Below the pieces are notes generated by a model. The model ran no database searches. It was not told where the DNA came from and was given only the letters and a program-made list of their open reading frames with translations. Shown here piece by piece: positions 11,296-61,929 of a DNA stretch of 64,000 nucleotides; the stretch's first letter is position 1; each line of letters begins with the position of its first letter. The stretch covers positions 34,930,002-34,994,001 of the forward strand of contig OY987242.1 of NCBI GenBank assembly GCA_963920765.1, given 5' to 3'. Made by a program: the position numbers and the translations under genes. The stretch is from Ulota crispa. Its lineage: Eukaryota > Streptophyta > Bryopsida > Orthotrichales > Orthotrichaceae.

Positions 11296-13753
11296 TTCAT
11301 AAGACCTCCGTCCCGTTTCGTAATACCCCCCCTAAACGCAGCACCAAACAACCATGAGCCAAGAAACAAACGATCTCAGCAAGTATCCACCACGTTGATC
11401 TTTCCAAACATACGCAAAGGTTAAACGCACCTTGTAATCGAACCCATAGTTGCCAAAGAGGGTCGTCGGGGTGAATAAAGGCCGTGGACACTCCAAGTAC
11501 TCGTAATGCCTGATTTCTGGCATCTCTGACGGGGATCAAAATCGACTATGAACACCAGTTCCAGTTCCTCAGGCTCTGTATCTTCACAAGTCCTCCGTAG
11601 TGCTCTCCAACTTTTTCAAGGGAGATCATGTTGAGCGCTCTTACTACACCTTCCAGCTCAAACCCTCGAGAAGCGTTGCAGATCATCTCGCGTGATCGCA
11701 CTTGTAGGCATCTTCTCTGTTTATCACCACTTCGTTTGTGGCCGCGTGAGCTTTATCGACGTTTGCTTATCAGGTTGGGATATCGGGATGTCAAATCTGC
11801 TACCTGGGCTTAACAATCCCGATTGCAACAGCAACCACAAGTCATCACGTGGGCATGGCCCCACTCCACTCCACTTTACCAGATATACTACAGTACTCCC
11901 CTGGCACTGCAGTCGGAGCCTCGGAGGGAATCAATCCTTTTCCTACCATATTGCTAGGAACTGGGTGAACAGAAGTACAGACATTTCATTTTTTTAGTTC
12001 TTTTATCCCGATTTTAACTACACATGTAGATAGTCAGTCCATAATCAGTGTATTATGTCCAGGAAGTCTTCCAGGATACTAGTATGTTCGAGAAGAACCT
12101 GCTAAGCTGACTCAGCAATCGCAATCATGTACCACCAGAGCGTGAGCGATCACGTCACTGAGTGGATTTACCTGAGGCGTTGAAGACTGTGAAAAATCTC
12201 ATGAATCTGCTTCTTTTACTTAGACTCTGCGATAGGAGGCCCGATAGAAAATCAATTTGCCCGCTCGACTGAAGTTTGGGGATATTGCAAGTATGCCAGG
12301 TTTGAGCCGATCTGACCCAAAGTTCGAGCGTTGAGAGGCTCTTATTATCCGTCAGCGTGCTTCTTGTGACCGTCTGGAGTAGGAGAGCGAAATGAGAGCT
12401 TCTTCACTCTCGTGCAAGCACATCCTGACCAAGGTACGGTTTAGAATCACATTGTTGCAGGCACTGGGATGGAGAATCTATAAGTCACTCAAAATTCGGA
12501 ACCAAAGTCGATGTAGAAGATGAAGGAAGTTGTAATTATTTGGCAGGCAAGTTGAAGAAGATTTGACAGAGGCAGATTCTTGCATGTCTGTCTTCTCCCT
12601 TGAATTCTACTTAATACATCTCTCTTGAATTTTAATACAGCCCACACTTTGAGCGGCTCAATTGCAGGCATTTATGCAAAAGCGATTATCTCCAAAGTCG
12701 AATCTGCAGTGGAGCTCTGTTTGAGGAGGTTTGGAAGTCGATCCTGGGAGAGGTTTGAATCTCACTTATTCGTAGTCGTAAGAATCTGACTGACTGACTG
12801 AGGGTTTTGGTGCCTTTGTTATCATGTCAAGAATATTAAGAAATTTCAAGACCAATCTTAGACGGAAAACAGTCCTAATTTTGAGCTTCTGTGGACTTGA
12901 AAGCCAGAATTTTTAGCGCTGCTAAACAAATCATTTCAACATTAATGACTATTTCATTAATTGGTGAATGGAACTCCCAACTTCCAAGAGGGACCGTCGG
13001 ACCGAAACTATCATGCTGTAATGCCATTCTTCTTTTTCTCTTGATCACTTTGTATAACTTGGATTTCTAACCGAGTTTCCAAAATTGGCATAGGGACAAC
13101 ACCATCTGGGGCCTGGGCTCTTCTTCATACCGGTGCGAGGATCAGTTTAAGTGTTATTAACTTGCTAGAAGCTGGAGATGAGCTCGCTGTAGAATATATG
13201 AGCTGACACATCCCGTAGGACAAAATGTCAACTGACACTAGTCCAATGCTCAACTGAAGGTAAATGTTTCATGCTGCCTCCAACTGCTTGAGAAGAACGA
13301 AAATCATTCAAACACCATATTAGGTAAATTGGAAAAATGGAAGACCCATTTTTTACTCCACAGTATATGTAGGCATAGCTTTAGTTGAAAGTTGTAATTA
13401 TTTGAAATTCTTGGAGGCAATCACTGAGAATTCACTATTGCAAGAAAGTGCACCCTTGTTCATTCGTAATATGCTAAATTGTACATTCTGAGAGAAGTAG
13501 TGAAGGTCCCCAAAAGTACTGTTTTTCCCAATTTATTTAATTATAGTGTTTTTTGGTCCTGTTAGCCATATGCCCATATCGTCATGTTTAACTGAGCCAA
13601 ATTAGTGACATTCATTTGCACTGAGCTAAAAAAAACTAAAATTTTTTTAGATCTGAGGTTCCAGAGAGGCCCTGGAAAAGTGCTGGGATCTCCACTATTG
13701 TGATGATCATTAGTCTTCTTGAATGCCTAACCGTTTTTATTTCTGATTAAACC
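11296..13753. other. Spacer between the HMA gene and the kelch-trihelix gene
   Basis: This interval lies between two divergent genes and so should hold both promoters. A short ATG exon candidate at 12392-12433 (MRASSLSCKHILTK, donor GTACGG) could be a leader exon of the downstream gene but cannot be joined with confidence. No other family signal is visible. Confidence 0.3.
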
Positions 13754-13885
13754 ATGGAACTTCCATGGACAGTTCGCACGTTTTTGGAATCATTCAGGTT
13801 ATGGACAACGATGACAGGCATGTGCAATGGGACATCCCCTTCGTGCAATGGGAAGCAAATATCGGTCTACATACTGGGCAGATAG
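13754..13885 (+). other. Overlapping out-of-frame upstream ORF
   Basis: An ATG in strong context (ACCATGG) opens 11 bases before the main start and runs 43 codons to a TAG inside the main frame. If the transcript begins upstream, scanning ribosomes would meet it first, which would lower translation of the main protein. Alternatively the mRNA starts between the two ATGs. Confidence 0.45.
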
Positions 13886-15846
13886 GTGGAGATCAGGGTC
13901 TGGACGAGTCCTTTGGTGGAGAGTTTTCATTTGCTTGTCAGGATACTGCTGGACCAACATTCGAGCTAACATCAGCCGACCTCCCAGTATGTAATTTTCC
14001 TACCGTCACATCATTTTTGCAGCAGTCACTAAGTTTCGAAGATCGACATGAGGAGCCCACACGTATCCAAAAGGCGCTTGCCCCTGCTGACTCTATTTTC
14101 ATGGACAATAGACCCTGTTTCCAGTTGCGGACGAAGAATGAGCCTTGGAAGGAGGCATTCGAGAGGCTTCATTCAAATCTGGAGCGTGCTGAATATGGCT
14201 TTTTAGCCGCAATAGAAGCAGGTCATTCTCATACAAACTCCCCTCAAAATTCAGCAACAAACTTTTCTTCAAAGGTCTCCATGGTAGCTGGTGATCGAGA
14301 CGTGTTTTGTATGAGTATTGAGGATGCCTCAAGCTCCGCAAACCTGATTGTCTTCAAACCTCTAACGCAGCTCCAAAACCTGCCTCCTCTGACTCAACTC
14401 AGAAACCCTGTCCTCTTGCACGTCCTTACAGGTGATCACGGGCATTGCAAGGTTATCGTGGTTGGGGCTAGCACTAGCATCGATTCTCGTCATCCTGTGT
14501 CCTGCACTACCTATGTATACGATTCTAAAAAAGGTACATGGAAGAATCTGCCGGGCCCAAGTTTTGCGCTCAAAGAGTTCCAAACAGGTGCATATTATAT
14601 GGATTTCGAGGGCCGCAAGTATCTTTGCTGCGTTGCTGACGTCAACATGGAAGGTACAAAAGGGGTAATTTTGTTTGATATCGAGAACGAACTTTGGGTA
14701 CAACACTCCATTGAGCGTTACATTCCGCATGTCAAGGGGATGATACCCAAATCTGTTGGTAGCATTACCAGAGCCCAAATCGTAGGGTGTGGCCGGGAAC
14801 GTGGCGGACTTGTCTTTGTGTTTAGCGAGCAGGAGTGCGAGGGGGACAAGTATTTGTGCATTCACAAGCTCGATCCCGATAATTTTAACGGCGAAGATAG
14901 GTGGGAAGAAATTGTCATGAAGAAACAGACTAACCATGGACCAGCTTCGGTCGGACTTCAACCTATTCCTACGTTCCCTTGTGTCCCATTGACAGCAACC
15001 GTGATCATCGACAGTAGGGGAGATCCCATTGTGTTCAGCGAGCAAGAGTTAGATGAGCTTGTGTTCATCAAAATTAGCATGTACGAAGGCCATCTCGACT
15101 CCGATGAAGGAATTTGGGAAGAGATACAGTGTTTCTCGAGCAAACACTCGACGAGTAGACATCGAAGCAAAAACTGGGCCCTTGAGGAAAGGCTCGTATT
15201 ATTGAGGTCAAAGGAGGTTGCACCTGAGCAAGTTAACGGAGCACCCTGGAAGTTCACTTCGAAAGAACTGGAAAATCGTCGTTTTAACCGAGGCCCCCAA
15301 GGGTGCGAAAATCAGTGGGGTACTCTGTTGAAGAGCTACAAGGATCTGACAGAGGAACTTCGATCCAAGAATATTAATTCAGGTGACCAAAGTTCCTTGA
15401 AGGAGTTTTGGGAAAGGCAGGAACGCAAGGTGCGCAACACGTTCAACTCGGAATGTTATGAAATTATGCACAGAATTTTGACTGAAGGAACTCAAAATAA
15501 GAGGCCCTTGAAGCAAAAGGTACATGAAGCTGAAGCTAAACCTCAGGCTTCTCCTGCCAGCACTTCCAGGGCTCCTCGGTCTGAGATTTTGGACAATTCA
15601 GACGGTCACGGTAATGAGCAGAGATCGGGCAGTTCCACTGCCATGGATGGCGTGGTGGAGCTTATTGCCGGGGGTGGCCAGAATTACACGAATGACCAAA
15701 GAATTGAAGTTTTGAAGGAGATAAACAGAGAGAAAGAATTGCGATTCAAAGAGAACGAATTGCGATTCAAAGAGAAAGAATTGCAGATCAAGTCACAAAA
15801 GCTTGCCAGAGCCGCTCCTAAGCGTAGGAAGAGGAAGTTGAAGTAG
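13765..15846 (+). CDS. Kelch/F-box-associated propeller fused to a Myb/SANT-trihelix domain
   Basis: An uninterrupted 693-codon frame. Residues about 1-150 are acidic and unrecognised. Residues about 195-460 look like the kelch/galactose-oxidase-type propeller of plant F-box proteins: TTYVYDSKKGTWKNLPGPSF, FDIENELWVQHSIE, GGLVFVFSEQE and EGIWEEIQCF. No F-box is seen ahead of it. Residues about 469-570 form a trihelix/SANT-like DNA-binding domain with the expected tryptophans: KNWALEERLVLLRSKEV, GAPWKF, CENQWGTLLKSYKDL and LKEFWERQERKV. Residues about 645-693 are a Glu/Lys coiled coil with a repeated ELRFKE, then a basic nuclear signal PKRRKRKLK. Together this suggests a nuclear DNA-binding protein that uses a propeller to hold partners. 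The lack of introns in a region of intron-rich genes suggests a retrocopy or a fused single exon. The domain calls are by eye. Confidence 0.8.
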   Translation: MDSSHVFGIIQVMDNDDRHVQWDIPFVQWEANIGLHTGQIGGDQGLDESFGGEFSFACQDTAGPTFELTSADLPVCNFPTVTSFLQQSLSFEDRHEEPTRIQKALAPADSIFMDNRPCFQLRTKNEPWKEAFERLHSNLERAEYGFLAAIEAGHSHTNSPQNSATNFSSKVSMVAGDRDVFCMSIEDASSSANLIVFKPLTQLQNLPPLTQLRNPVLLHVLTGDHGHCKVIVVGASTSIDSRHPVSCTTYVYDSKKGTWKNLPGPSFALKEFQTGAYYMDFEGRKYLCCVADVNMEGTKGVILFDIENELWVQHSIERYIPHVKGMIPKSVGSITRAQIVGCGRERGGLVFVFSEQECEGDKYLCIHKLDPDNFNGEDRWEEIVMKKQTNHGPASVGLQPIPTFPCVPLTATVIIDSRGDPIVFSEQELDELVFIKISMYEGHLDSDEGIWEEIQCFSSKHSTSRHRSKNWALEERLVLLRSKEVAPEQVNGAPWKFTSKELENRRFNRGPQGCENQWGTLLKSYKDLTEELRSKNINSGDQSSLKEFWERQERKVRNTFNSECYEIMHRILTEGTQNKRPLKQKVHEAEAKPQASPASTSRAPRSEILDNSDGHGNEQRSGSSTAMDGVVELIAGGGQNYTNDQRIEVLKEINREKELRFKENELRFKEKELQIKSQKLARAAPKRRKRKLK

Positions 15847-17510: not shown

Positions 17511-19636
17511 CTACTTCGATGCTTCACGTTGAGCATCAACCGACACTTGGTGAGCAGCATTTTGAGTGTCCACGGCTGTATCATGGGCAGCGTTCTGAGT
17601 ATCAGCAGCAGCAGCCTGCGTCTTTCCCACAAGAGATTCCTTCACACCCCACAATGTGTTGCCAACATTCTGCATCAAACCCTTCCCTTGGTCAATTACA
17701 GAGTTGGTAGTAGCACCCGTCTTGTTGGCAGCTACACTGGCGTTCGCAGCAGTTGCATCCTTCGCTGCAAGGGCCTTTTCCGCTGCAATGTTGTATGTGT
17801 TGGAAGTGGTATCAACAGTGACGTCTTTCGCAGCAATAGCCTTCTCCGCTGCAATGTTGTAAGTATTGGCAGCAGTATCCACCGTCACATCTTTCGCTGC
17901 AAGAGCCTTCTCTGATGCGATGTTGTAAGTATTGGCAGCAGTATCCACCGTCACATCTTTCGCTGCAAGAGCCTTCTCTGATGCGATGTTATAAGTATTG
18001 GCAGCAGTGTCAACCGTCACGTCCTTCGCAGCAAGGGCTTTCTCCGCCGCAATGTTGTATGTGTTGGCAGCAGTGTCAACCGTCACATCTCTCGCGGCAA
18101 GAGTCTTGTCCGCCGCAAGGTTATAAGTGTCAGCAGCGGTTTTGTAAACAGTGTCCTTCGCTGCAACAGCCTTGGTTGTCGCAGTGTTGTAAGTGTCTAC
18201 CGCAGCTTGCGCAGTCGTGTCCTTGGCCTGAATGGACTTGTCAGCAGCTGTATTGTAGGTGTCCGTGGTGGTAGAAACAACGGCATCCTTCGCCTCTACA
18301 GCCTTCTGTGCTGCGAGGTTGGCAGTGTCTGCGGCGTAGTTGTAAGCCTGGTTTGCCTTCTCAGCGGCCAGGTTGTACACTTCATTCGCCTTCTGAACTG
18401 TGGTATCCTTTGCAGCCAAAAGCTGATCCTTCGTCGCGTTCGATGTATCCACAGCCGTTGTTGAAGCAGCGTCGTAAGTCTCAGCGGATTTCTGCACGGT
18501 TGTATCCTTGGCACTGACGGCGGCGTTCGTCGCTTGGTTCGACTTCGCCACTACTGCGTCCTTCACTGCGTAAGCGGTTTGGAGGACGCTGTCTACTGCC
18601 TGTTGAACGTAGCCCTTCGTTGCCTGCGTTCCCTGTGCAGCCTTAACTTGTCCAGCGATAGAAAGGTTCTTGATGCCTTCCTGCGCTTCACTGACCTTCT
18701 GGCCTGTCACATCTCCAGCCTTTTGAGTGTTGGCAGCCACGGTATCTTTAGCTGAGACCGCAGTAGCGTAAACCTGATCACTCACGTTTTGAAGAGTGGA
18801 TTTCCCTTGTTGCGTAGCATGTCCAGCTGTCTGAGCAGCACTTTCGTACCCCGACTGAGCTGCATCCTTCGCTTCAGCGGCCTTTTGTTGCGTGTAATCA
18901 CTAGCTGTACTTGCGGCCTGTAAAACGCATAACCAAATACCATCACAATCAAGACCACACCTTCCAAAGAAAATGATTGTGACGACTCAAACTCAAGCTC
19001 AATGCTTCCATAAAATACTAATTAACAGAAAAAAGAACCAAATGTACTCAAAGAATATATCTCACCTGCTGAGTGTTGCCTTTAGCAGCCGCATAAGTGT
19101 CACCGGCCTTATCACCAGCTTGCCTGGAGTAATCTTGCGCAACATCAGCAGCTTGCGCAGCCTGGCTTTTGCCACTATCCACAGCATTTCCAGCAGCGTT
19201 TCCCGCGTCATTCAAAGTCCTATCAACATCAGTCTTTCTGCAAAGTCATCAAAAGACACATACGTCTTTAGTCTCAAAACAAACATAACAGTCACCAAAA
19301 CCTAGATCGCAGCAAATTTCTCAAAGAACAGATATAACACCATATTCCACCCATTTAACTTTCTTCCAGAAACCTACGAGGCGCAAGCCAAGACTAACTT
19401 CCACATCAACTAAATGGCAGAGTTTCGATCTACTAAATAAGAACGATCTCGCTCATCGTTAAACAGTACTCCTATCAGGACACACTCAACGCCGAACCTA
19501 TACTCAAACCAAACCCTAAACTATGAACATATATGTTAAGGCACGTCAAAAAACGGTCACAAAAACTAACGAGTGTACAGACATTGTGTAACCATGATTC
19601 TCACCCTTGAGCAGCGGCATCGTCAAAGGTGGCCAT
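17511..19636 (-). CDS. LEA_4 (group 3) late-embryogenesis-abundant protein
   Basis: Three exons on the minus strand: 19605-19636 (start MATFDDAAAQG), 19066-19237 and 17511-18917, with GT-AG introns and consistent phases, giving 536 residues. The protein is Ala/Lys/Thr/Asp-rich with no Cys-rich or membrane part and is built of 11-residue amphipathic units such as KDVTVDTAANT. Six almost identical 22-residue double units (YNIAAEKALAAKDVTVDTAA) lie in its second half. Such proteins are disordered in water, fold into helices on drying, and protect membranes and enzymes in cytosol or organelles. The C-terminus has GKGLMQNVGNTLWGVKESL and ends DAQREASK. No signal peptide is visible. The ABRE and CE3-like boxes upstream point to abscisic acid and drought induction. 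The family call is secure; the exact subgroup is not. Confidence 0.92.
17760..18110 (-). repeat. 66-bp coding tandem repeats of the LEA gene
   Basis: Between five and six units of 66 bp (22 codons) are nearly identical at DNA level, including synonymous positions. Two neighbouring units around 17900-17995 are almost the same, so the array has recently grown or been homogenised. Confidence 0.9.
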
Positions 19637-22035: not shown

Positions 22036-22291
22036 AATGCGTTATTCCTTAAAATGGGAAAATGATGGGTACCATTTTGTACCTCACCTTAATCCAAAAT
22101 AGTCACTTTAAACCAGATTTGAAGGTATCAAATCCAGTCTGAGACACTAAGATTTTTTCCCTTGCAAATTCCTCCTCTCAAGTGAGGACATATGTACCAA
22201 AAAAACGCTAGAGCTCAAATTAAGTTGACCACGTTAATCCTTCAAAAATCCCAAAATGAATTCTTTTTTCCAATTTAACAAATAAGGTGTT
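22036..22291 (+). mobile_element. 4-bp-TSD MITE, copy 1
   Basis: Ends AATGCGTTATTCCTT and AACAAATAAGGTGTT. Flanks are ATTG (22032-22035 and 22292-22295). The internal motif CAAATTCCTCCTCTCA is shared by the family. Confidence 0.8.
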
Positions 22292-22295
22292 ATTG

Positions 22296-24429: not shown

Positions 24430-24433
24430 TTAA

Positions 24434-25324
24434 TCACTAAAATTCTTTTGTGTTTAGAGGTTCAAAACGCTTCAAAATGCTAGTCCCCAAACCAAGGTCA
24501 AAATTTTCATTGAAACTTATTTTTTAACAAACCCATCCATAGGATCCTTTGGTTGACTTGCACAAGTATACTGTCCCAAAATTTCAGAATTAATATCCCC
24601 ACCAATTGCAAGATCAATGTGCCTAAATTTCAAAATGTAGGTTTTTCTAATCCTTCCAAAAGGTGATATTTTGATTTTCAAACTTTTTAGAAAAAAGCAC
24701 ATATGTTGTATTTCTTGTGCAATTTTTGCAATATGTTGGAAAATGGGTTGAAAGCATATATAAAAAAAATTTTGGATTCATTTTTATAAAAATTGTGAAA
24801 GATATTGATGAATGAAAGATATAACTAATATGCTAATAAGTTTTGGAAGAATTTGAAAATTATTAATTCCAATGGTGAGAATGATCTAACAAACAATTAG
24901 TAACTTTATTTTTCATTTTCATTTGAATATTTTCAAAATTGAGAGTAAAAGATAACTTTATATGTTTTTTCTACCCTCTTCCTATCTTCATTGCCCACAA
25001 AAGAAAACTCCTTTTAACTCTTACCTCATTATTTGGAATTGAGTGATTCAAGTTTTTTGAGTAGGTATCAATTTATACAATTCTATAAAAAAAGTTAAAA
25101 AAATTAAGAATATATTTTTTGCTACCTGGTTTGACATTGAAATTGAAAAAACCTTCTAACTTTTGCAGTACTTATCCAAATGACATGAAATAAAGCTTCA
25201 CATGTAGATTATGATGAGTAGCATCCATCCTAAAAAATTCATGCAAAATTTCCAAATTATGAAGTCAATAGAGCCTGCCTGAGTTCTCATAAAGCCCAAA
25301 GTGGGTTTCTTGGGCCTTTAGGGG
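24434..25324 (+). mobile_element. TTAA-target element, long copy 1
   Basis: An 891-bp element homologous end to end with 32951-33859 in the opposite orientation. It is flanked by TTAA (24430-24433) and TGAA (25325-25328, one change). The right end is GGGCCTTTAGGGG. No transposase frame remains. Confidence 0.7.
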
Positions 25325-25328
25325 TGAA

Positions 25329-25810
25329 ATCATTCAGTTCTAGATTTTTGAGTAATAACCAAATAGTACCGTTTCATATAAAAATGTTTGTAAGAACATC
25401 TTGAAAAAACTCAAATTATGTAGTATGGTTTGATAAAAGAGGCCTTCTTGATTTCTTTGTCAAAATTATATAGCTAGTGAGATATTTGTAACTTAAATCA
25501 CAAGTGAAAACACCATGCCTTCATTTTTGTGGTTAGTGCCATTTATACTAATCTTATTTGCATTTTTTTACAGCAGCGATGTTTTTAGCTTGTAAAGATC
25601 TTGTAATAAAGGTGAACCTTAAATGAATTACAATACGCTAAATTATAGGATCGATCTCATCTCATTCAAAATAAAATTGTATAAAACTAAAGTACATTTT
25701 AAACAACAATTCCAAAACTGTTTAGAGAGCAGTAAAAGAAAATTAGGTGAATAAACATCGAACAGAAAAAATCTTGGTTTTCTCCTTTGATTATCTGTTG
25801 GGAATGCAAA
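25329..25810. other. AT-rich spacer
   Basis: No feature is recognised. Confidence 0.4.
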
Positions 25811-28599: not shown

Positions 28600-29226
28600 G
28601 CTATTTCTGAGGAATCTACACCATGGCATTCATAGTCACTAAGCCTCACTCATGTACAAACATTCGTGAACAAATGTGCTTACAACTCAAAAATCATGTT
28701 AATATTGCATGAAAACCTCTCGATGACGTGAGTATTCAGAAATGTAAGTTCTCAAAACGTGATGAGGTCTCGGACTGTGTGTTGAGGAATACGACTTTTA
28801 TCTATCTGACTTGCTAAATCTGTATCAAAGTAAAGCTCATTAAGGTCGGCACTGGAGTGACACAAGACAGGTAAATCTTCGGGAATGTAAGAGACTTCCC
28901 AGTTCGTGCCTGAGGCTCGTCGAGGTAGCTGACGCATTGGTTGACTTGAAGTCCTTCGCAGCTCACCTGCATTCAGGCCAACAAGGAAATATTCAGTTGC
29001 AGCAAAAGGATTATCTAGTTGCAGTAACTTATGGGAGATTCTCCCATATTAGGTAAATTGGAAAAAACAGTACATTCTGGGACTATTCACTTCTTTGCCA
29101 TTATGTACACTTTGGAATATTACAAAAAAACAAGCGTGCACTTTCTTGTACAATAGAGAGGTATTAATGATTGCATACAAGAACTTCAAATAATTACAAC
29201 TTTGAATTGTAGCTATGCCTACATTT

Positions 29227-29478
29227 AACGCCATATAAGGTAAATTGGGAAAAACAAAGATATCATTTTGTACTCCACCTCAATCCAAAATAGTCACCTC
29301 AAATCAGATTCAAAAGTATCAAGTTCAATCTAAGCCATTAAGATTTTTTTCCTCACAAATTCCTCCTCTCAGGTGAGAACACGTGTACCAAAGGTGGTTT
29401 GGGGTGATCACCCCAATTTTCCCAAATTTTCAAAAGTCCCAAAAGACCGTTTTAACGCAAATTACTTAATATGGTGTT
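29227..29478 (+). mobile_element. 4-bp-TSD MITE, copy 2, in the last ANTH intron
   Basis: Ends AACGCCATATAAGG and CTTAATATGGTGTT with ATTT on both sides (29223-29226, 29479-29482). It sits inside an older copy of the same family, whose remains are 29045-29222 (CCATATTAGGTAAATTGG) and 29483-29552 (CACCTAATATGGTGTT). Confidence 0.85.
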
Positions 29479-30387
29479 ATTTAGTATATGTGGGATTAAG
29501 GTGGAGTACAAAATGGTCCCTCCGTTTTTCCCAATTCACCTAATATGGTGTTAGCTGAATAATATGGTGTTAGAAGGAAAAATAAGGAATGAGTAACAAT
29601 CTAAGGGAGATATACTCGTCGCCATCTATTTAAGAAATCGGCACTCTTGAAAGACGTTAACTGCGAATATAGGTCAAATGGACACCTTGCAAAGATGTTC
29701 AGAACACCAGAGATTCTTAGAATAAACAGGTAATGAGCAGAGAGATTCTCAAGGTATACAAGGAATGAGGAATTACAGGACAGAGTCAATGGTGAGGGGT
29801 TGGGTGTAAAGTAGAAGAAAAATGGGAGAATCTGAAGTGAACTCCTAGTTAGAGGAGAATGGTAATTGCGAAGAAATCTCACCGGCTATTTGGGATGTGC
29901 ACTGATGAACAAGACCTCCAGCCAGACCTTTTTCGCCTGTCGACACCGACCGTGTAAACGATGGAGCGCTTGGCTGTCTCTGTAAAGTCTGAATACTCTC
30001 AGTCAACATCTGGATTTCAGTCTTGCTCACCATGGCTTTTCCCGGCAAAGGAATGTCAGAGAGCAATCGCAATTCTTTGCAATTCTCCAAAAACAATTCC
30101 AGGGTTTGCATTTGAACATCAGCTCTTGTGCAATTATGCAAAGTAGCAAGGCTCTCAGAAAGCGCCAAGTTTTTCACTCTCGAGAGCAGTTCTGTAATCC
30201 GGTACCTCATCTCGTCAACTACCTTGAAGCTATCCATCACCACCAGCACGAGCGCACCCTGGATTACCGAATGCTCGCCTGCCTCGGCTCTTGGCTCGCA
30301 TTGGTACAACTCCTGCAGCAAATTCTGGAGCGCTTCTACATGGTACAACAGCTCCTGAGTCTCCATGTATTGTATTAAACATCATAT

Positions 30388-30605
30388 TTGTTATAATGAG
30401 AGTTTTCCAATGAATTGAGAGTAATTTAAAAGAAATACAACTTGAAATTAAATTTTTTTAGGACAACTCGACAAAAGGCTTTAGGTCAATTGAGCTGAAT
30501 TGCCATAAAACCTTTCAGATTTGACCTGAAAGATTTTATGTCAATTCAGAAAACTCTCATTTTAATGTTTATTTTGAGAGGTCCCCATTCTCTCATTATA
30601 ACGAA
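30388..30605. mobile_element. 218-bp foldback MITE in the ANTH locus
   Basis: Outer ends TTGTTATAATGAGAG and CTCTCATTATAACGAA pair. Inner arms CATAAAACCTTTCAG and CTGAAAGATTTTATG also pair around ATTTGAC. It separates the third and fourth ANTH coding blocks. The target duplication is unclear. Confidence 0.7.
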
Positions 30606-30930
30606 TTTCCAGAATAATTCTGGTTTGCGTGATCTCGCCTTTCCACCTGTGGTCAAGATGGGTCTTCAACACAAGTTAGGGCGCATCGAAGCCTTTCATC
30701 CAAGAATTGTGCATAGTTTTTTACCCAAAGGCAGAACTTTCAAGCCTGGTTAGATGTGGAAAAACTCAGGTAATCCTTCCCTTCTCTGAGTGAGCTGAAA
30801 GCAAGCAAATCTTGGAACAAGAAACCGCCGTCTAGCATACTTCGATGCAAAATCACGAGGCACTTGGCGGCAACGGCCCAGTTTTGTGTCTTTTTGAGGC
30901 GCTTCACAAGAAGCCACGTGCAGAAAGAGA

Positions 30931-31311
30931 CTTGCATCCACGGTTGTCATATTGGACCTTTCGTCCGTACACCTGAAGTGTCCAGTTGAGCTCATGGTCA
31001 GTCTGATGTAGTCAACTCATAATTAACTTCAAAATATGATAAAAAAATGACAAAAAAAAAAAAAAAAAACTTACTTTGTGCATGTTGGTGACACTCATTG
31101 TTGCCAATATGAAGTCAAAAACGTGAATTCAAAACCATATCAAGTATTAAAAATGAAAAATAATAATTGGGTTCTTCCTATGTTAGGTCAAAAACCCTAA
31201 AAATGTCTTAAAAAACAAAAGAGGACGGACATGCCTGTCTGTGATGTCTGTTTTGTGCGTTTGCATGTGCTGTCGCCAAATCTTGCCCAAAGTAATAACC
31301 TTGCTTGCATC
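30931..31311 (-). mobile_element. hAT-like element inserted in the ANTH exon
   Basis: The element is 30939-31303 (365 bp). On the minus strand it begins CAAGGTTATTACTTTGGGC, and its other end, reversed, begins CACGGTTGTCATATTGG. A perfect 8-bp target duplication GATGCAAG flanks it (31304-31311 and 30931-30938). Ends starting CA and 8-bp duplications are hallmarks of hAT transposons. It is homologous throughout to 61575-61921. It carries a poly-A/T tract at 31049-31069 and no transposase. Confidence 0.9.
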
Positions 31312-31637
31312 CGAGACCTGTCACCCGCTGCAAGAATGTCGTCCACATAATTCTCCTCCGGCAAGCTCTCTTGATGATTCGTGGCCCTTACTATTGCCAA
31401 TTGCAAGTGCGAGAAAGGGCCGCTTGCTCTTGCCACACCTGTCGCAGTCTGGTCCTTTAACAAATCAAGTACAGCTGCTGCAAGCTTGGTCCGTCCTCTC
31501 AACCATTGCGCCACTGCCATACCCTAAATTGCCACTTTCTCGAAGTGGCCAACTCTCACAAAGCTTCACATGTGCAATGTAGCAATGGCCACATTTGCAA
31601 TTTCACCACCCTGCTCCTCTGGGGTACAATAACAAAA

Positions 31638-32364: not shown

Positions 32365-32783
32365 TAGATACAGGGAATGACTAGGTGGACACCCCCAATT
32401 GCTACGCGGACACTCCATAGCTTGGCCTATTAAATTTGAGATTTATTATTATGCTAAAATATAAAATACAATCAAAGCAATAAATTTGCGTACATTTGTG
32501 TTTACAAGCATTGCAAACATACAACAAATCTACCTCATTTGTAACATGATCAAGAGTTAAACCAATACATGGAAGGAGCGACTAGTTCAACTCCTAACAG
32601 TGTCATAAATGAGGCAAATTTGTTGTATGTTTGCATTGCTTGTAGATATAAATGTAAGCTAAAATATTACTTTGATTTTATTTCATATTTTAGCGTAATA
32701 ATAATCTCAAACTTAATAAATTGGACTATGGGGGTGTTGGCATAGCAATTGGGGGGTGTCCACCTAGTTGCTCCCTAGATAAA
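32365..32783. mobile_element. 403-bp foldback element nested in MITE copy 3
   Basis: The element is 32373-32775. Long arms of about 165 bp begin GGGAATGACTAGGTGGACAC and, reversed, GGGAGCAACTAGGTGGACAC. Flanks are TAGATACA and TAGATAAA, an 8-bp duplication with one difference. Joining the flanks gives the host MITE's TAGATAAATTGGG. The 8-bp duplication suggests hAT. Confidence 0.8.
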
Positions 32784-32946
32784 TTGGGAAAAACAATACA
32801 TATTGGAATTTTTGAGAATTAAGGTGATCAACTTAATTTGAGCTTTAGTATTTTTTTTGGGTACACGTGCCCTCACCTGAGAGGAGGAATTTGGAAGGGA
32901 AAAAATCTCAGTGGATCATACTGAATCTGATACCTTTGAATCTGGT

Positions 32947-33863
32947 TTAACCCCTAAAGGCCCAAAGAGCCTACTTTGGGCTTTAGGAGAACTCGGGCAG
33001 GCTCTATTGACTTCATAATTTGGGAAATTTTCATTTATTTTTTAGGATTGATACTATTCATCATAATCTACATGTGAAGCTTTATTTCATGTCATTCCGA
33101 TAAGTAATGCAAAAGTTATAAGGTTTTTTCAATTTCAATGTCAAACTGAGCAGCAATATATATATATATATATATATGTAATTTATTTATAGAACTTTAT
33201 AGATTGATACCTACTCAAAAAAATTGAACCACTCAATTTCAAATAATGAGGTAAGAGTTAAAAGGAGTTTTATTTTGCAAGCAATGAAGGTAGGAAGAGG
33301 GTAGAAAAAACATATAAAATCATCTTTTACTCTCAATTTTGAAAATTTTCAAATGAAAATGAAAATTAAAGGTACTAATTGTGTTAGAGCATTCTTACCA
33401 TTGGAATTAACAATTTTCAAATTCTTCCAAAACTTATTAGCATATTAGTAATATCTTTCATTCATCAATACCTTTCACTTAACAATTTTTGTAAAAATGA
33501 ATCCAAAATTTTTTTTGGTTAAAATTTTCTAGATATGCTTTCAACTCATTCTCCAACATATTGCAAAAATTGCACAAGAAATACAACATACGTGTTTTTC
33601 TCTAAAAAGTTTGAAAAATAATACTTCACCTTCTGGAAGGACTAGAAAAGCTTACATTTTGAAGTTTAGGCACATTGATCTTGCAATTGGTGGGGATATT
33701 CATTCTGAAATTTTGATACAATGTACTTGTGCAAGTCAACCAAAGGACCCTATGGTTGGATTTGTTAAAAGGTAATTTTCAATGAAAATTTTGACCCTAG
33801 TTTGGGGACTAGTATTTTGAAGCAGTTTTGGGCCTCTAAACACAAAAGAATTTTAGGGGTTAA
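32947..33863 (-). mobile_element. TTAA-target element, long copy 2, nested in MITE copy 3
   Basis: The element is 32951-33859, beginning CCCCTAAAGGCCC and ending ATTTTAGGGG, with TTAA on both sides. Removing it leaves GGTTTAAGGTGAC, the uninterrupted sequence seen in other host MITE copies (for example near 37915), so the TTAA duplication is real. It is homologous to 24434-25324. Confidence 0.85.
33159..33179. repeat. AT dinucleotide microsatellite
   Basis: Ten or so AT units inside the long TTAA-target element. Confidence 0.9.
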
Positions 33864-37010: not shown

Positions 37011-37263
37011 AACATCGTATTAGGTAATCTAGGCAAAGGGTACTTTTGGGACTTTTAGGTTCTAGATGATCACCTTAGACCAAACTCAAGGTTTTTTTTT
37101 GGTACACGTGTCCTCACCTGAGAGGAGGAATTTGTAAGGGAAAAAATCTTAGTGGCTCACTCTAAATCTAATACCTTCAAATTTGATTTAAGGTAACTTT
37201 TTGGGTTTAAGGTGGAGTACAAAATGGTACCTCCCTTTTGCCTAGATTGCCTAATACGGTTTT
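37011..37263 (-). mobile_element. 4-bp-TSD MITE, copy 4
   Basis: Ends AACATCGTATTAGG and CCTAATACGGTTTT, with AGTT on both sides (37007-37010, 37264-37267). It is in the opposite orientation to copy 5, 470 bp away. Confidence 0.85.
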
Positions 37264-37734
37264 AGTTGAACAACCCACAATAGGTTACAAAGGCAATTCT
37301 TGTCAACTTTGTTGCACAGCTTCAATTAGTTTAAATTTTGTAAGACTTTGCTTTTTGTTCTATTGGAATGTTTAAATTTTTGAGTCTAGTAGTAGTAATT
37401 TGATGTTTAAGATTTGAAAAGCTCATGGTAACTTATTATGTGTTCAATCACACATTTTGCAATGATTATTTCAATGTTATTTCAAATGGATACACATGCT
37501 TTTTGTTGTAAGGTGTAAACATTTTATAATATTATGTAATGTTTTCTAGCTCCAGACTTTTGCAATAGCATGGCTCTAGTTTATCATTGACATTTTCACA
37601 AGGACTTCATAATTACCATGCATTTACTAGAGAAAAAACCTTTTTTGTACGAACCCATTGCAAAATGTTAGTTGATTGGAAATCTTGCTTATTGTGTAAT
37701 GTTCAAATCATGATTTGCCAACACATGAGACTAT

Positions 37735-37988
37735 AACACCATATTAGGTAAATTGGGAAAAAGGGAGGTACCATTTTGTACTCCACCTTAAACCCAAAAA
37801 GTCACCTTAAACCAACTTCAAAGGTATTAGATTTAGTTTGAGCCACTAAGATTTTTTCCCTCACAAATTCCTCCTCTCAGGTGAGGGCACGTATACCAAA
37901 AAAAACCTTGAGCTTGGTTTAAGGTGATCACCTAAAACCTAAAAGTTCCAAAAAGTACCCTTTCGCTTAGATTACCTAATATGGTGTT
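37735..37988 (+). mobile_element. 4-bp-TSD MITE, copy 5 (best preserved)
   Basis: Ends AACACCATATTAGGTAAATT and TTAGATTACCTAATATGGTGTT-like, 254 bp long, with CTAT on both sides (37731-37734, 37989-37992). Confidence 0.9.
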
Positions 37989-46179: not shown

Positions 46180-46435
46180 AACACAATGTTCATTAAAAGG
46201 GGAATCATGTGTACCATTCTGTATTTCATCTTAATCCAAAATAGCCACCTTAAACCAGATTTGTAGGTATCAGATTCAGTTTGAGCCACTAAGATTTTTT
46301 CCCTCGCAAATTCCTCCTCTCAAGTAAGGCCACGTGTACCAATAAAAAACGCTAGAGCTCGGATTCAAGTGACCACCTTAATCCTTCAAAAGTCCCACCT
46401 TGTAAGCTTTTTCCAATTTTAATGAATATCATGTT
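46180..46435 (+). mobile_element. 4-bp-TSD MITE, copy 8
   Basis: Ends AACACAATGTTCATTAAAAG and TTTTAATGAATATCATGTT, 256 bp long, with ATAC on both sides (46176-46179, 46436-46439). The interior is close to copy 1. Confidence 0.85.
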
Positions 46436-46439
46436 ATAC

Positions 46440-61566: not shown

Positions 61567-61929
61567 GTCCAATGCAGGGTTGTTACTTTAGGCGAGTTGA
61601 GGCTGTTGGATAGCATGAATAGGCAAACAAATCAAACCAAATGGGCGGATTAGGGCATTTTTAGGGTTTTTGACCTAAAAATGGAAAAATTAAATTATAA
61701 ATTTTCATTTTTATTACGTGATATGGCTTTGAATCCATGTTTTGACTTCATGTTGGCAACAATGAGTGTCATTAGCGTGTACAAAGTAAGTTTTTTTAGT
61801 CATTTTGGACCATTTTTTAAAATCAACTACAAGCTGACTTCACCGGATGGACTATGACCTCAATTGGACATTTTGGGCGGATGAGCGGCAGGCGTACAGG
61901 CGGCCCAATGTAACAACCATGATCCAATG
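61567..61929 (+). mobile_element. hAT-like element, second copy
   Basis: The element is 61575-61921 (347 bp), beginning CAGGGTTGTTACTTTAGGC; the other end, reversed, begins CATGGTTGTTACATTGGG. It is flanked by GTCCAATG and ATCCAATG (8 bp, one difference). It shares GGGTTTTTGACCTAA and GGCAACAATGAGTGTCA with the ANTH insertion. Confidence 0.85.

What the first reader, a model, noticed from the sequence alone, without database searches (positions are those of the whole stretch)
30931..31520. A hAT-like element split an ANTH clathrin-adaptor exon and left a perfect 8-bp duplication
The gene's first block ends ...GDRSRMQ and the second begins VSFCTWLLVKRL. Both junctions carry GATGCAAG. Taking one copy of the duplication and removing 365 bp gives a continuous ANTH helix of the right length. 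No GT-AG intron does this: the only canonical in-phase choice (donor 31324, acceptor 30931) deletes seven residues. This records a gene-breaking insertion with its footprint intact, suggesting it is fairly recent compared with the surrounding decay.
Basis: partly seen in the sequence, partly recalled or inferred. Interest (0 to 1): 0.78.

Follow-up and report, generated by a model that had tools for sequence, protein, structure and literature searches.

The report
Small hAT-type transposon splitting an ANTH pseudogene
A 365-base DNA transposon that cannot move by itself, of the kind that duplicates 8 bases where it lands, sits in the first coding block of an already damaged clathrin-adaptor gene, probably of a plant; the case is well documented in the sequence but ordinary.

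Summary
The gene is on the minus strand; GATGCAAG occurs at 31304-31311 and 30931-30938 with 365 bp between. Keeping one copy gives a match to Pfam ANTH without net gap (69.5 bits; 60.7 and 54.1 for the two in-phase GT-AG readings). The strongest evidence is new: a second, full-length copy lies at 61575-61921 in the same window, with matching ends and its own 8-bp duplication, 7 of 8 identical. The insert is therefore a dispersed repeat, not a private intron. Both copies run CA...TG with imperfect inverted ends (13 and 16 of 22), which fits a hAT-type MITE; no transposase was seen, so superfamily membership rests on ends and duplication length. The gene also carries a nonsense codon and a second interruption, so it is a pseudogene and this insertion need not be what broke it. 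New member of a known kind; low interest.

The parts
30939..31303 (-). non-autonomous hAT-type element (MITE), 365 bp, given in the sense of the gene
   Evidence: second full-length copy in the window, TIRs and TSD
31304..31311 (-). target-site duplication GATGCAAG, on the 5' side in the sense of the gene
30931..30938 (-). target-site duplication GATGCAAG, on the 3' side in the sense of the gene
31282..31303 (-). 5' terminal inverted repeat, CAAGGTTATTACTTTGGGC...
   Evidence: 13 of 22 against the other end
30939..30960 (+). 3' terminal inverted repeat, read inward CACGGTTGTCATATTGGAC...
61575..61921 (+). second copy of the same element, 347 bp; TIRs 16 of 22
   Evidence: blastn 76.7% over 236 nt, E 2e-46; end-to-end alignment
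61567..61574 (+). left 8-bp duplication of the second copy, GTCCAATG
   Evidence: 7 of 8 identical to the right one
61922..61929 (+). right 8-bp duplication of the second copy, ATCCAATG
31304..31520 (-). first coding block of the ANTH gene (MAVAQW...GDRSRMQ)
   Evidence: Pfam ANTH together with block 2; alone 12.7 bits, below the cut-off
30690..30930 (-). second coding block (SFCTWLLVKRL...DER), with an in-frame TGA in SNQA*KFCLWV
   Evidence: alone, with X at the stop, 44.9 bits to ANTH model positions 35-115
29845..30366 (-). third coding block (METQELLY... to a stop), open, C-terminal part of ANTH
   Evidence: the ORF that holds it, 29845-30381: Pfam ANTH E 5.9e-17, 62 bits, model positions 150-257
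30386..30606 (.). second interruption, with 17-nt inverted arms (94%); probably another MITE, or an intron that holds one

Best explanation
A short non-autonomous DNA transposon of the hAT type (MITE), moved by a transposase supplied from elsewhere, inserted by cut-and-paste into the first coding block of an ANTH (AP180/CALM-like) clathrin-adaptor gene. The staggered 8-bp cut at GATGCAAG was filled in, leaving one copy on each side. Shown here: the repeat nature of the insert, the matching ends of two copies, the 8-bp duplications, and the reading across the empty site without net gap. Inferred: the transposase class, the cut-and-paste step, and that the gene had no intron at this point. The effect is a disrupted reading frame; none of the in-phase GT-AG or GC-AG pairs found restores the full protein. 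The gene is a pseudogene with at least one more disabling lesion, so which came first is open.
For: Second copy at 61575-61921: 76.7% over 236 nt, E 2e-46, aligned end to end (260 identities, 67 mismatches, 58 gap columns), with coinciding ends and its own duplication, 7 of 8. TIR consensus CANGGTTGTTACNTTGGGC from the four ends. TSD-plus-TIR search: 1 case in the window, 0 in each of 30 simulated sequences. ANTH 69.5 bits for the empty-site reading against 60.7 and 54.1 for the two GT-AG readings. No gap at the junction in the 4 PDB alignments shown, of 6 distinct sequences matched. In rice the NPF-less ANTH subfamily has few or no introns (PMC8076639, passages); I see no NPF in the three blocks as translated. 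Plant hAT MITEs have been classed by their 8-bp TSD and a few sit in exons (PMC7385995, passages).
Against: No transposase: 21 of 21 ORFs of 120 aa or more gave no hAT match in Pfam at E up to 0.1, though shorter or broken remnants were not scanned. No third copy in the window (five further profile hits, E 1.2 to 5.6). TIRs are imperfect, 13 of 22 in this copy. The Hermes/Ac-type target pattern nTnnnnAn is met at one of two positions in each duplication. Direct repeats near intron borders are reported for every one of 213 introns examined in one study (PMC11782384, abstract), so the repeat alone would prove little. No genome is held for this window, so no empty site or autonomous partner could be sought.
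Confidence: 0.93

Rival explanations
1. An ordinary GT-AG intron. The most natural version has donor CAAG|GTTATT at 31299 and acceptor GCAAG|TC (AG ending at 30931), with a later 4-bp CAAG repeat at the donor spoiling the frame.
For: GT lies 4 bases inside the segment and AG ends the downstream GATGCAAG. Direct repeats of 4-30 bp at or near intron borders were found for each of 213 introns in one study (PMC11782384, abstract).
Against: The same segment recurs at 61575-61921 with coinciding ends and different 8-bp flanks. The CAAG is the element's own terminus; its counterpart in copy 2 is CAGG. Splicing there as it stands shifts the frame to an early stop. The two in-phase GT-AG pairs lose 7 residues or add 29 codons and score 9 and 15 bits less.
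Confidence: 0.03
2. The insert is a DNA element of another superfamily with 8-9 bp duplications, for example a Mutator-like element with a 9-bp TSD (GGATGCAAG).
For: The direct repeat at the gene is 9 bp long. No transposase has been linked to the element.
Against: In copy 2 the 9-bp version (TGTCCAATG, GATCCAATG) matches 7 of 9, and with a 9-bp TSD the two TIRs fall one base out of register; the 8-bp version gives symmetrical CA...TG ends in both copies (read).
Confidence: 0.05
3. The ANTH gene is cargo of a larger transposon (Pack-type), since inverted repeats flank it at 29301-29392 and 32857-32948. This would be in addition to the small insertion.
For: 92-nt inverted arms, 83% complementary, 3464 nt apart.
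Against: The arms belong to a dispersed repeat with further copies at about 22050, 37011, 37734 and 46189 in either orientation. The two flanking copies end differently; the right one abuts a separate 0.9-kb repeat at 32943-33863 that recurs at 24430-25332.
Confidence: 0.04

Closest known systems
Plant hAT MITEs such as BniHAT-1 and BniHAT-2 of Brassica nigra (PMC7385995, passages)
   Same: short, AT-rich, non-autonomous, 8-bp TSD, short TIRs; one and three members reported in gene exons
   Different: sequences not compared; this element is shorter (365 and 347 bp against 673 and 666 bp), and its copy number in the genome is unknown
Maize Ds1 and other Ds elements that behave as introns (Dennis 1988, Wessler 1991, Giroux 1994: seen only as entries in the reference list of PMC3260210; content recalled)
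   Same: Ds1 is about 400 bp (abstract of PMC3260210), hAT type, inserted in transcribed coding sequence; here too a GT lies close to the 5' end and an AG in the downstream TSD
   Different: splicing at those sites here would leave 4 extra bases and shift the frame; no transcript data
Introners (PMC9860276, passages)
   Same: non-autonomous element with TSD and TIR in coding sequence; one splice site can come from the TSD
   Different: no frame-keeping splice found here; that survey reports introners, among animals and land plants, in two groups only, both animal

Membership tests
hAT superfamily, non-autonomous (MITE) | 8-bp target-site duplication (as stated in PMC8961557) | tested here: met
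   8 of 8 at the gene, 7 of 8 at the second copy
hAT superfamily, non-autonomous (MITE) | short terminal inverted repeats, 10-25 bp (as stated in PMC8961557) | tested here: met
   imperfect: 13 of 22 and 16 of 22, all matches within the first 19 positions; consensus CANGGTTGTTACNTTGGGC
hAT superfamily, non-autonomous (MITE) | terminal motif YARNG (recalled from Rubin et al. 2001; paper not held) | tested here: inconclusive
   CAAGG and CAGGG fit; CACGG and CATGG miss at the third base (ends)
hAT superfamily, non-autonomous (MITE) | target pattern nTnnnnAn of Hermes (PMC10368747) and hobo/Ac-type elements (PMC8961557) | tested here: inconclusive
   GATGCAAG has the A at position 7 but not the T; GTCCAATG and ATCCAATG have the T at position 2 but not the A
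hAT superfamily, non-autonomous (MITE) | an autonomous relative with a hAT transposase sharing the ends | not testable with these tools
   no genome held; within the window, 21 of 21 ORFs of 120 aa or more (list) gave no hAT match at E up to 0.1
MITE | several copies of similar length with the same ends | tested here: met
   two copies, 365 and 347 bp, coinciding ends; two is the minimum, genome copy number unknown
spliceosomal intron | GT-AG (or GC-AG) borders giving the conserved protein | tested here: not met
   8 in-phase stop-free pairs in the range scanned (2 GT, 6 GC), none with the gap-free junction; the two GT ones score lower, the six GC ones were not scored
ANTH domain gene | match above the Pfam gathering score | tested here: met
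   blocks 1+2 joined: 69.5 bits; the ORF of block 3: 62 bits; cut-off 21.5

The most novel reading that the evidence does not exclude
The element is a near-miss mobile intron of the Ds kind: its 5' end brings a GT donor four bases in and its target duplication supplies the AG acceptor, so transcripts may be spliced there. Where the same family lands in a frame-compatible way it could act as an intron, which would be an introner-like family in a land plant.
Probability: 0.04. Interest if true: 0.6.

Novelty: new member of a known kind. Interest (0 to 1): 0.2.

Why it matters
It is a clear record of a small DNA transposon landing in coding sequence, with two copies whose ends are defined. I could not tie it to a named family: 40 papers hold one of the four 12-base ends, and by their titles none of the 10 listed is about transposons (30 not seen). 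For annotation it matters because a gene finder could call the element an intron and produce a false ANTH gene model. It does not change any view of how such elements work.

Tried and rejected
Own-genome search for more copies, an empty site or an intact ANTH paralogue: not possible, no genome held. Further copies in the window: the profile of the two copies found those two (by construction; E 3e-115 and 8e-111) and five others at E 1.2 to 5.6. A TIR pattern with up to 3 mismatches gave 10 matches against 7.5 expected (21 of 100 shuffles reach 10); at 0 mismatches it found three of the four known ends, from which it was built, and nothing else. ANTH paralogue in the window: tblastn gave nothing beyond the gene itself (best other E 1.3 for block 1 and 3.9 for block 3); the block-2 query in that call was in the wrong frame, so the negative does not hold for block 2. 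Pack-type capture: rejected, the flanking inverted repeats are two of several dispersed copies. Second interruption (30386-30606): removing 205 bp between its TTATAA motifs brings blocks 2 and 3 into one frame but leaves three stops in the loop; removing 219 bp does not. No clear TSD, so MITE or intron stays open there. A 31-nt, 71% direct repeat between the element and block 1 was judged chance, without a test. Dating by lesions: 1 nonsense codon in blocks of 324 sense codons fits d of about 0.02-0.05, but d = 0.10 still has a 9% chance of at most 1; this leaves out the three stops in the loop. It points to a later death of the gene than the element divergence does, weakly. Intron positions in plant ANTH genes: searches (15 of 878 papers listed; 1 paper) gave one paper that I opened, the rice one. 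A first paper search for the element's ends asked for three of six terms and so could not show absence; one search replaced it.

Full report
What was claimed.

Checking the sequence. On the minus strand GATGCAAG stands at 31304-31311 and 30931-30938; the 8-mer also occurs at three other places in the window. Between the two lie 365 bp. Translating with one copy kept gives one frame through GDRSRMQ-VSFCTW. Pfam ANTH: 69.5 bits, residues 39-152 on model positions 2-115, 114 against 114, so without net gap. Block 1 alone scores 12.7 bits (below the cut-off of 21.5) and block 2 alone 44.9, so the join adds about 12 bits over their sum. In the range scanned, two in-phase stop-free GT-AG choices exist; they give 60.7 bits (donor 31324, seven residues lost) and 54.1 (donor 31216, 29 codons gained). 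Six GC-AG pairs were also in phase; none gives the gap-free junction and they were not scored with Pfam. The PDB comparison finds 6 distinct chain sequences of CALM/AP180/LAP type at E 0.006 to 0.011; the four alignments shown have no gap at the junction, which falls at NEMNVN|IPQL.

The decisive evidence. A blastn of the insert against the window finds a second copy (76.7% over 236 nt, E 2e-46). Aligned end to end it runs from 61575 to 61921 (347 bp), with ends that coincide with those of the insert. It is flanked by GTCCAATG and ATCCAATG, 7 of 8 identical. Both copies run CA...TG. Inward, the ends match at 13 and 16 of 22 positions, with a four-end consensus CANGGTTGTTACNTTGGGC. A search of the window for the combination (exact 8-bp repeat, CA..TG, TIR at least 13 of 22, 200-600 bp) returns this element alone, and nothing in any of 30 Markov sequences. 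The thresholds were set after seeing the element; copy 2 fails them because its duplication is 7 of 8. The insert is therefore a dispersed inverted-repeat element with an 8-bp target duplication. Plant hAT MITEs have been classed on that duplication (PMC7385995, passages), and hAT elements in general have 8-bp TSDs and TIRs of 10-25 bp (PMC8961557, passages). In a survey of 207 plant genomes, in the families where insertion sites were compared with genes, exons were the least frequent place for MITEs (PMC12550479, passages), so the site is uncommon but not unheard of.

What is less certain. No transposase is linked to it; 21 of 21 ORFs of 120 aa or more in the window gave no hAT match in Pfam at E up to 0.1. 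The terminal motif YARNG (recalled) fits two of four ends. The target pattern nTnnnnAn (PMC10368747, passages) fits at one of two positions in each duplication. A 9-bp Mutator-like reading is weaker, because the second copy then matches 7 of 9 and the TIRs lose register. Direct repeats near intron borders have been reported for each of 213 introns examined (PMC11782384, abstract), so the repeat at the gene alone would not decide; the second copy does.

Age. The two copies differ at 67 of 327 aligned sites (20.5%; K2P 0.24). This dates their common source, not the insertion. The TIR consensus has 17 decided columns of 19, hence 34 scorable positions for the two ends of a copy; the gene copy departs at 4 and copy 2 at 1. 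An intact 8-bp duplication has a 17% chance at 10% divergence per copy and 43% at 5%. So the footprint does not show recency. On the other side, the gene has one nonsense codon in blocks of 324 sense codons, which by itself fits d of about 0.02-0.05 (P of at most 1 at d = 0.10 is 9%). The three stops in the loop between blocks 2 and 3 are not in that count. The two lines pull in different directions and neither is decisive.

The gene. Block 2 contains TGA in SNQA*KFCLWVKNY, opposite a tyrosine in the CALM/AP180 alignments shown and, from recall, tryptophan in plants. Between blocks 2 and 3 lies a stretch with 17-nt inverted arms at 30386-30402 and 30590-30606 (94%). Taking out 205 bp there gives a common frame but leaves three further stops. 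The third block is open, and its ORF matches ANTH at 62 bits. This is a pseudogene with several lesions, and the hAT insertion is one of them. In rice, ANTH genes without NPF motifs have few or no introns (PMC8076639, passages), which fits an uninterrupted ancestor but was not tested for this species.

Splicing. The element brings GT at its fifth and sixth bases (CAAG|GTTATT, 31299), and the downstream duplication ends in AG (GCAAG|TC). Using both would leave four bases and shift the frame to an early stop. The arrangement recalls Ds elements of maize that act as introns (titles in the reference list of PMC3260210; content recalled) and introners (PMC9860276, passages), but here it does not keep the frame.

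Verdict. Observation confirmed. Insertion and hAT-like class well supported. Recency, and the role as the event that killed the gene, not supported. Ordinary; new member of a known kind.

Noticed in passing
30386-30606: A second interruption of the ANTH gene with 17-nt inverted arms (94%) and an inner hairpin (24-nt arms, 92%); probably another MITE, or an intron that holds one. No clear target duplication.
   Followed up: partly
32372-32776: A nearly palindromic element of about 400 bp (self-inverted, 76%) with TATCTA on both sides; it interrupts the repeat copy to the right of the ANTH gene.
   Followed up: partly
29226-29553, 32780-32950, 22045-22293, 37011-37264, 37734-37988, 46189-46437: A dispersed repeat family in both orientations, pairs 79-94% identical; two copies happen to flank the ANTH pseudogene as inverted repeats.
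   Followed up: partly
24430-25332 and 32943-33863: A 0.9-kb inverted pair, 88% identical.
   Followed up: no
13311-13541 against 29048-29227 and 29501-29552: The stretch at 13311-13541 matches both sides of the repeat at 29227-29500 but lacks its middle, which looks like an empty site or an internal deletion.
   Followed up: no
17511-18986, minus strand: A long ORF with repeated LEA_4 motifs (Pfam E 6.8e-24), in a stretch of internal direct repeats.
   Followed up: no
13747-15843, plus strand: A 699-aa ORF with a weak Myb/SANT-like match (E 9e-5, below the cut-off) and a marginal Kelch match.
   Followed up: no
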